Positions 2,523 through 33,694 of a DNA stretch of 64,000 bases are shown here, one piece after another (position 1 is the first letter of the stretch; each line of letters starts with the position of its first letter). The notes beneath the pieces were generated by a model. That model was not told the DNA's origin. It did not search any database and worked only from the letters and a program-made list of their open reading frames with translations. A program made the position numbers and the translations under genes. The DNA is taken from contig NZ_KI912608.1 of assembly GCF_000519265.1 (NCBI RefSeq), positions 3,071,313 through 3,135,312 on the forward strand, read 5' to 3'. Source of the DNA: Desulfonatronum lacustre DSM 10312 (GTDB lineage Bacteria > Desulfobacterota > Desulfovibrionia > Desulfovibrionales > Desulfonatronaceae).

Positions 2523-2616
2523 CGCACTCCTCTGGCGGATCGGATCACGTTTCTGGAAACGGGTATCCAAAGTCAGCCGACCGCCCTCCGGATCAAAGGA
2601 AATATCAAGGCGTGTG

Positions 2617-2797
2617 GTACCTACTCAGCTCATTTTGTATCCGCCCTTGCTCCGGCAATCGGAGTCGGGGTCGCTATCGGAATCGGAATCGGAACAGCAA
2701 AAATTTTGAACGCTTCCCAGCGTTTTCGATCCCGATAGCGAAGCGCCGATCCCGACTCCGACCCCGACAACGGCGTTACTCTATGCTGAATAGTTAC
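2617..2797. mobile_element. MITE copy 1 (IS66-like ends), 181 bp
   Basis: Begins GTACCTACTCAG and ends CTGAATAGTTAC, a 12-bp terminal inverted repeat with two mismatches to the other copies. It is flanked on both sides by GGCGTGTG (2609-2616 and 2798-2805), a perfect 8-bp target duplication. The interior is two long imperfect inverted arms of GATTCCG/GATCCCG units around a small central hairpin, with no coding capacity. GTAA termini plus 8-bp duplications are features of the IS66 family; a trans-acting transposase is inferred, none is in this window. Confidence 0.88.
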
Positions 2798-3738
2798 GGC
2801 GTGTGGAGCAACTGTTCGGCCAGTTCCAGGGCATCCACGGGCCAGTAGATTTCCGGACGGGGACGGCGCACTCCGGGTAGGCCCTCCTGGGGGCGGCAGG
2901 CGAGGACGGTTTTGGTCCATCTTTCCGGCACGGCGCTCAGGCCGTGGACCGCGCCCAGCAATGCCCCGCAGATGGCGGCGTTGGTGTCCGTGTCCCCGCC
3001 GCGCATGACCGTGTCCACGATCCCGTCTTCCAGACTTGGGGCGTTGAGCAGCTGCCAGACGGCGTTGCCGAAGGCGATGAGCACCCAGCCCTGGTGATGG
3101 AGATAATCTCTTGGCGGTTCGTTGATGCAGGCTTTGATCACACGGAACAGGAGCGGGTCGGCGTCCATGTCCTGGGCCCATACGAGCATGTCGACGACAA
3201 GTTCCTTGGGATTGGCTCCGGTGGCAACGGCACGGGCAATGGCCATGGTGAAGAGGGCGTTGACCTGGAGACAAATCGGGTGGGGATGGGTCAGTTCAGC
3301 GTCTTGGACGGCCCATCGGGCCACCTGGCTCAACTCGAATCGCGAACCGAATATGCCCAGGGGGCTGATGCGCATCAGGGCCCCGTTGGCTTGGCTGTCC
3401 TGATTTGGTTCGCCGGTCAGTCCGGCGGTGATGGTCGCGCCGCGGGAGAAGGGGGCGGAGCGTAGCCAGTCGAGATAGCCCCGGTTCGCGGCCCCGGCGT
3501 CGTAGTCGCGGCGGGAAACGAGCATCCTGGCCAGGGCCAGGGCCATTTCGGAATCATCCGTGGGTTGGCCCGCGAGGGTGTCGTGCGCACCGCCGTCGGC
3601 CATGTCGCGCACCCCGTCGGGATACGCGCGCTGGATTTGCTCCGAGGACTGAAATTCCACCAGGCTTCCCAGCGCGTCGCCGGCCAGTTGCCCCAGCAGG
3701 CATCCCTGGGCTCGTTCGATGATATGTTTTGCCCGCAT
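2794..3738 (-). CDS. ADP-ribosylglycohydrolase (DraG/ARH family)
   Basis: 314 residues with the three signatures of the family: GDALG at 20-24, TDDSEM at 60-65 and GGDTDTN at 247-253, which together hold the binuclear metal site. Such enzymes remove ADP-ribose from modified arginines or other acceptors. The start lies 3 bp after the antitoxin stop, so it is translated as the third gene of the BrnT-like/RHH operon. Its last codon and stop are formed across a MITE insertion: without the element the gene would end CAC ACG CCT TGA, with it CAC ACG CCG TAA, so the protein is unchanged. All metal ligands appear intact, so activity is expected; the target is unknown. Confidence 0.88.
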   Translation of the reverse strand: MRAKHIIERAQGCLLGQLAGDALGSLVEFQSSEQIQRAYPDGVRDMADGGAHDTLAGQPTDDSEMALALARMLVSRRDYDAGAANRGYLDWLRSAPFSRGATITAGLTGEPNQDSQANGALMRISPLGIFGSRFELSQVARWAVQDAELTHPHPICLQVNALFTMAIARAVATGANPKELVVDMLVWAQDMDADPLLFRVIKACINEPPRDYLHHQGWVLIAFGNAVWQLLNAPSLEDGIVDTVMRGGDTDTNAAICGALLGAVHGLSAVPERWTKTVLACRPQEGLPGVRRPRPEIYWPVDALELAEQLLHTP

Positions 3739-17947: not shown

Positions 17948-18129
17948 GTAACTACTCAGTACATTTTGTGTCCGATCTTGCACCGGCAATCGGTGTCGGG
18001 GTCGGCGCTACGCTATCGGAGTCGGAATCGAAACAGGAAGAATTTAGAACGCATCCCGGCGTTTTCGATCCCGATTTCGATTCCGATTCCGACCCCGGCA
18101 ACAGAATTACTTTTGTGCTGAGTAGTTAC
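17948..18129. mobile_element. MITE copy 2 (IS66-like ends), 182 bp
   Basis: GTAACTACTCAG (17948-17959) and CTGAGTAGTTAC (18118-18129) are perfect 12-bp terminal inverted repeats. Left flank AAAAAAAC (17940-17947) and right flank nine As followed by CC are compatible with an 8-bp duplication of an A-tract that later slipped. The interior shares most of its sequence with copy 3 (for example AGAATTTAGAACGCATCCC). Inserted in the 5' A-tract of a bidirectional terminator. Confidence 0.85.
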
Positions 18130-33394: not shown

Positions 33395-33694
33395 ATCGGT
33401 ATCGAAATCGTGATCGAAATCGAAATCGAAATGAACGTCATATCCTACGAGGTGCTGTAATTACAGTAATGCGCAGTATTTGTAACTACTCAGTACATTT
33501 AGAGCCCGCTCTTGCTCCGGCAATCGGTATCGGGGTCGGCGCTTCGCTATCGGAATCGGAATCGAAACAGGAAGAATTTAGAACGCATCCCAGCGTTTTC
33601 GATCCCGATCCCGATTCCGATTCCGACCCCGGCAACAGAATTTCTCTGTGCTGAGTAGTTACCAGTATTTTTCGACTTCGATACCGATTTCGAT
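33395..33694. repeat. GAAATCG-type inverted-repeat element E, interrupted
   Basis: Left arm 33395-33432 (ATCGGTATCGAAATCG then ATCGAA units) and right arm 33671-33694 (GACTTCGATACCGATTTCG) pair with each other; MITE copy 3 with its target duplication lies between. Removing the MITE gives one continuous hairpin element of about 110 bp like A, B and D. Confidence 0.65.
33482..33662. mobile_element. MITE copy 3 (IS66-like ends), 181 bp
   Basis: GTAACTACTCAG (33482-33493) and CTGAGTAGTTAC (33651-33662) are perfect inverted ends, flanked by CAGTATTT at 33474-33481 and 33663-33670, a perfect 8-bp target duplication. Interior highly similar to copy 2. Inserted inside element E. Confidence 0.9.

What the first reader, a model, noticed from the sequence alone, without database searches (positions are those of the whole stretch)
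2601..2805. MITE copy 1 replaces a stop codon without changing the protein
Reading the minus strand, the ADP-ribosylglycohydrolase ends CAC ACG CC|G TAA, where the G TAA comes from the element's terminus. With the element and one duplication removed, the frame is CAC ACG CC|T TGA: same residues His-Thr-Pro, different stop. The insertion thus fell in the wobble position of the last codon and the GTAA end provides an in-frame TAA. It explains how such an element can be tolerated and gives strong internal evidence that the duplication is real.
Basis: seen in the sequence. Interest (0 to 1): 0.75.

Follow-up and report, generated by a model that had tools for sequence, protein, structure and literature searches.

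The report
Tiny transposon lends gene its stop
A 181-base non-autonomous transposable element landed in the very last codon of a bacterial gene, and its own end (GTAA) now supplies the stop codon, so the protein kept its length; a close relative without the element supports this, making it a clean but ordinary case of a harmless insertion.

Summary
The element occupies window 2617-2797 between exact 8-bp duplications GGCGTGTG (2609-2616, 2798-2805). On the minus strand the ADP-ribosylglycohydrolase ends CAC ACG CC|G TAA, with G TAA from the element; removing the element and one duplication gives CAC ACG CCT TGA, same length.

A same-genus relative (90% amino-acid identity, same next gene) lacks the element and ends TCA ACG CCA TGA: same length, same stop position and triplet; only the wobble base differs (CCA, not CCT).

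The family is high-copy: 78 paired-end copies in the stretches read, 39 with exact 8-bp duplications, none spanned by a predicted gene. Its ends (GTAACTAYTCAGC) and 8-bp duplications match IS66-family transposons of the ISBst12 group, whose transposase was not found in this genome.

Stop donation recurs: three other copies end a gene at the same G|TAA, probably costing 1-3 residues. A chance-plus-selection null expects about 1.1 such cases, so no targeting is needed. Two copies may also supply start codons.

Verdict: correct and well supported; a new member of a known kind. MITEs overlapping gene 3' ends are already reported in Coxiella.

The parts
2617..2797 (.). MITE copy 1, 181 bp, IS66/ISBst12-type ends
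   Evidence: Paired terminal inverted repeats and family matches in the genome
2617..2629 (+). Left terminal inverted repeat GTACCTACTCAGC (gives no stop in the G|TAx frame)
   Evidence: Sequence; family end pattern
2785..2797 (-). Right terminal inverted repeat GTAACTATTCAGC (supplies G TAA)
   Evidence: Sequence; family end pattern
2609..2616 (.). Target-site duplication GGCGTGTG, left copy
   Evidence: Exact 8-bp match to 2798-2805
2798..2805 (.). Target-site duplication GGCGTGTG, right copy; last codons of the gene
   Evidence: Exact 8-bp match to 2609-2616
2794..2796 (-). Stop codon TAA supplied by the element
   Evidence: Translation
2794..3738 (-). ADP-ribosylglycohydrolase gene, 314 aa
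   Evidence: ORF, Pfam PF03747
1725..2522 (-). Universal stress protein gene, next downstream; synteny marker in the relative
   Evidence: Pfam PF00582; start chosen by my codon-usage gene finder; orthologue follows the same gene in L010

Best explanation
A non-autonomous element of the IS66 family (ISBst12 group) inserted, after this species split from its nearest sampled relative, between the 2nd and 3rd base of the last sense codon of an ADP-ribosylglycohydrolase gene. An 8-bp staggered cut left GGCGTGTG on both sides. The element's terminal GTAA completed the proline codon (CC|G) and supplied an in-frame TAA in place of the native TGA, so the protein kept its length and last residue. Shown: element, duplication, reading frame, empty relative, match of the ends to IS66-type transposons. 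Inferred: transposition by an IS66 transposase not found in this genome today, and survival because the insertion was harmless rather than useful.
For: Exact duplication and frame. Relative without the element, same synteny, same length, TGA at the same place. Family of 78 copies, 39 with exact 8-bp duplications, none spanned by a predicted gene. IS66 relatives with the same ends: Marinobacter and Chlorohelix elements with exact 8-bp duplications, an Oceanisphaera element, and a G001 remnant whose transposase stops inside the end. ISDge4 of the ISBst12 group has near-identical ends and an 8-bp repeat (PMC12898284).
Against: The relative has CCA, not CCT, so the exact ancestral wobble base rests on the duplication alone. 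No conspecific empty site was available. No IS66 transposase was found in this genome, so the mobiliser is inferred.
Confidence: 0.93

Rival explanations
1. The element family targets the 3' ends of genes or stop codons, and the fit to the stop is by design.
For: Four of 78 copies end a gene at G|TAA; the distance to the nearest gene end facing the element is shorter for 3' ends (median 61) than for 5' ends (median 95).
Against: A null of random survival between genes or at G|TAA positions costing up to 3 residues expects about 1.1 cases, and 0.27 perfect ones. Only one of the four is a perfect exchange. In congeners, gene-end overlaps fall in other frames. No common sequence is evident in the exact duplications beyond A+T richness (mean GC 0.375).
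Confidence: 0.05
2. There was no insertion here: the repeat is an old REP-like palindrome, and the flanking 8-bp match is chance.
For: High copy number, strong end-to-end fold (-85.1 kcal/mol, z -7), mostly intergenic location.
Against: Defined terminal inverted repeats and exact 8-bp duplications at half the copies, shared with IS66-type transposons. The nearest relative lacks it and aligns through the junction. REPs are described as 20-40 bp palindromes (abstract of PMC3733652).
Confidence: 0.01
3. The insertion changed expression or stability of the ADP-ribosylglycohydrolase and universal stress protein transcript and was kept for that effect; the stop exchange is incidental.
For: The element lies between two genes of the same strand, folds strongly as RNA, and holds a terminator-like hairpin on the transcribed strand.
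Against: No expression data; the terminator-like match is weak and pattern matches of this kind are not evidence of function.
Confidence: 0.1

Closest known systems
IS66 family, ISBst12 group (e.g. ISDge4 of Deinococcus geothermalis, PMC12898284)
   Same: Ends GTAACTGCTCAGCA / GTGACTACTCAGCA against GTAACTAYTCAGC here, and an 8-bp direct repeat
   Different: ISDge4 encodes a 449-aa transposase and transposes; the element here is about 180 bp and encodes none
QMITE1 and QMITE2 of Coxiella burnetii (PMC5896051)
   Same: MITEs overlapping the 3' ends of functional genes by as little as 1-3 bp, with protein mass said to be little changed
   Different: No kinship with these ends was tested; here the exchange is resolved to the base, with a relative lacking the element
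RU-1 (ERIC) in Erwinia ECA3499 (PMC2759123)
   Same: A small mobile repeat that replaces a gene's normal stop codon
   Different: RU-1 adds residues in frame; here none are added

Membership tests
MITE (non-autonomous inverted-repeat element) | Short, multicopy, no transposase gene | tested here: met
   181 bp; 78 copies with median 173 bp
MITE (non-autonomous inverted-repeat element) | Terminal inverted repeats and target-site duplication | tested here: met
   13-bp repeats; 39 of 78 copies with exact 8-bp duplications
IS66 family, ISBst12 group (as its MITE) | Ends beginning GTAA that match an IS66 element | tested here: met
   Same ends on IS66-type elements of Marinobacter, Oceanisphaera and L221; ISDge4 ends. 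This copy's left end is GTAC, a variant
IS66 family, ISBst12 group (as its MITE) | 8-bp duplication | tested here: met
   also on Marinobacter and Chlorohelix elements
IS66 family, ISBst12 group (as its MITE) | Source transposase in the same genome | tested here: not met
   No PF03050 match in G000; congener G001 holds a remnant with the same end. Usual for an orphaned MITE and not required for membership
IS66 family, ISBst12 group (as its MITE) | Mobilisation by an IS66 transposase | not testable with these tools
   Needs a transposition assay
REP / RAYT palindromes | 20-40 bp palindrome, tagged GTAG or CGTC at one end | tested here: not met
   About 180 bp with 8-bp duplications; definition from the abstract and title of PMC3733652

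The most novel reading that the evidence does not exclude
The terminal repeat acts as a portable translation boundary: read inward, one frame stops at once (G|TAA); read outward, it offers ATG CTG AAT AGT TAC as a new start. In related IS66 elements the transposase gene itself stops inside this repeat. The family would then be shaped to replace gene ends without harm, with selection keeping that property.
Probability: 0.08. Interest if true: 0.5.

Novelty: new member of a known kind. Interest (0 to 1): 0.3.

Why it matters
It is a clean, base-level example, with an empty relative, of a mobile element exchanging a gene's stop codon without altering the protein. It shows that tolerance of small transposons at gene ends can depend on element orientation and frame. 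It also links an unnamed high-copy repeat of this genus to IS66/ISBst12 transposons, whose transposase was not found in this genome. The general phenomenon is already known.

Tried and rejected
A plasmid DNA search for the element found nothing. A frame bias (all four G000 cases in the G|TAA frame) looked suggestive, but congeners G004 and G005 show gene overlaps in other frames and the null expectation is about 1.1, so targeting was rejected. A start codon apparently supplied by a G005 copy (L279) was rejected because a better start preceded by AAGGAG lies just downstream. The other IS66 hits in G001 and G003 do not show a matching pair of ends in the stretches read. For some minus-strand orthologue loci the first printout read the wrong strand; those used were re-read. 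A search for papers on MITEs in Desulfonatronum, my guess at the genus, found none.

Full report
Observation. Window 2617-2797 is a 181-bp element with ends GTACCTACTCAGC and GTAACTATTCAGC, flanked by GGCGTGTG at 2609-2616 and 2798-2805. The minus-strand ORF 2794-3738 is an ADP-ribosylglycohydrolase (PF03747, E=5e-61). It ends CTC CAC ACG CCG TAA. The G of CCG and the TAA are the element's terminal bases. With the element and one duplication removed, the frame ends CTC CAC ACG CCT TGA at the same length of 314 residues.

Among 60 related genomes, G005 (same genus) has the closest orthologue, 90% identical. It is followed by the same universal stress protein gene, 90% identical, with no element between them. 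It ends CTC TCA ACG CCA TGA AATGTGCTTTGATCCG. The joined flanks of the window read CTC CAC ACG CCT TGA TATTTCCTTTGATCCG, and the two align through the junction. Protein length, final proline and the TGA agree; the wobble base differs (A, not T) and the third-last residue differs (Ser, not His). Congeners G003 and G004 have the same C-terminal length, and G001 is two residues shorter. The simplest reading is that the insertion happened after the split from G005.

The family. The 13-bp end (GTAMCTAYTCAGC) occurs 81 times in the 3.76-Mb genome, with no match of the reversed control. Pairing ends in the fetched stretches gave 78 copies, median 173 bp; 39 have exact 8-bp duplications and 50 match at 7 or 8 positions. 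No copy is spanned by a predicted gene (a simple codon-usage gene finder of mine). The element folds end to end as RNA (-85.1 kcal/mol, z -7). Related copies occur in congeners G001, G003, G005 and G007. G001 appears to be a Desulfovibrionales bin (contig of the same length and identity, L076), so the window probably belongs to that order.

Which transposon. No IS66 transposase was found in this genome. In congener G001 an IS66 C-terminus (PF03050) runs straight into the same end, and its stop TAG lies inside the end: GCT GAG TAG TTAC. Searching with that fragment found a 960-bp element on a Marinobacter plasmid (GTAACTATTCAGC, exact 8-bp duplication), a 1504-bp element with an annotated IS66 transposase in Chlorohelix (exact 8-bp duplication), a 1570-bp element in Oceanisphaera whose transposase frame also stops inside the end, and an order member, L221. 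ISDge4, placed in the ISBst12 group of IS66 and seen to transpose, has ends GTGACTACTCAGCA / GTAACTGCTCAGCA and an 8-bp repeat (PMC12898284). The element is best read as a MITE of the IS66/ISBst12 type whose source was not found in this genome.

How often. Three other copies also end a gene at G|TAA. At 1324081 a protein that reads like a sensor histidine kinase ends TTG TAA where the element-free frame reads TTT ACA TCA ACA TGA (3 residues fewer, exact duplication). At 607375 a protein that reads like a sigma-54-type activator ends TTG TAA against TTG AGA TAA (1 fewer; duplication 6/8). At 1245823 a hemerythrin-like protein ends TTG TAA with no clear duplication; the G004 orthologue is one residue longer. 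These three names are my reading of the sequences, not tested. Only the window copy is a perfect exchange. If copies survive at random between genes or at G|TAA positions costing up to 3 residues, about 1.1 cases are expected among 78, and 0.27 perfect ones. With a Poisson mean of 1.1, four or more has a chance of about 0.03 and three or more about 0.10 (my arithmetic). The excess is small and was noticed after the fact, so insertion plus purifying selection is enough.

Frames. Entering at the right end, one frame stops at once (G|TAA), one stops after about five residues (xGT AAC TAT TCA GCA TAG), and one reads through nearly the whole element; the 214-aa ORF 2630-3274 uses that frame. Entering at the other end of this copy (GTACC) gives no immediate stop. 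About 65% of ends in the family read GTAA. The outcome therefore depended on frame and orientation.

Comparison. MITEs that overlap the 3' ends of functional genes by a few bases are reported for Coxiella (PMC5896051), and one that removes a normal stop is reported for RU-1 in Erwinia (PMC2759123). The case is a new member of a known kind, unusually clean because the protein is unchanged and an empty relative exists.

Limits. Gene calls around the other copies come from my own simple gene finder. No conspecific empty site was available. Copies were gathered around end and sequence matches, so degenerate copies may be missed. Protein expression and function were not tested.

Noticed in passing
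G000:C1:992814-992974 (L177) and G000:C1:3701398-3701564 (L218): Two copies may supply a start codon: the outward end reads ATG CTG AAT AGT TAC (or TCC) in frame with a lipoprotein-like gene and a putative acyltransferase gene. For the second, the flanks suggest the native start lay on the far side of the element, about 23 bp before the insertion, as in G005.
   Followed up: partly
window 17948-18129 and 33482-33662: Two further copies of the same family in the window; the second has an exact duplication CAGTATTT, the first matches at 7 of 8.
   Followed up: partly
L220 (G001:C27:16422-16716) and L227 1154-2723: In IS66 relatives with these ends, the transposase reading frame stops inside its own right terminal repeat (TAG in GCTGARTAGTTAC).
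   Followed up: partly
window 2709-2724 (minus strand): A terminator-like hairpin followed by AAAATTTTT inside the element, on the strand of the upstream gene.
   Followed up: no
L225 21-2642 (G025, same order): A 2.6-kb IS66-like element with ends GTAACTTCTCAATAG and an exact 8-bp duplication CAAAAACA.
   Followed up: no
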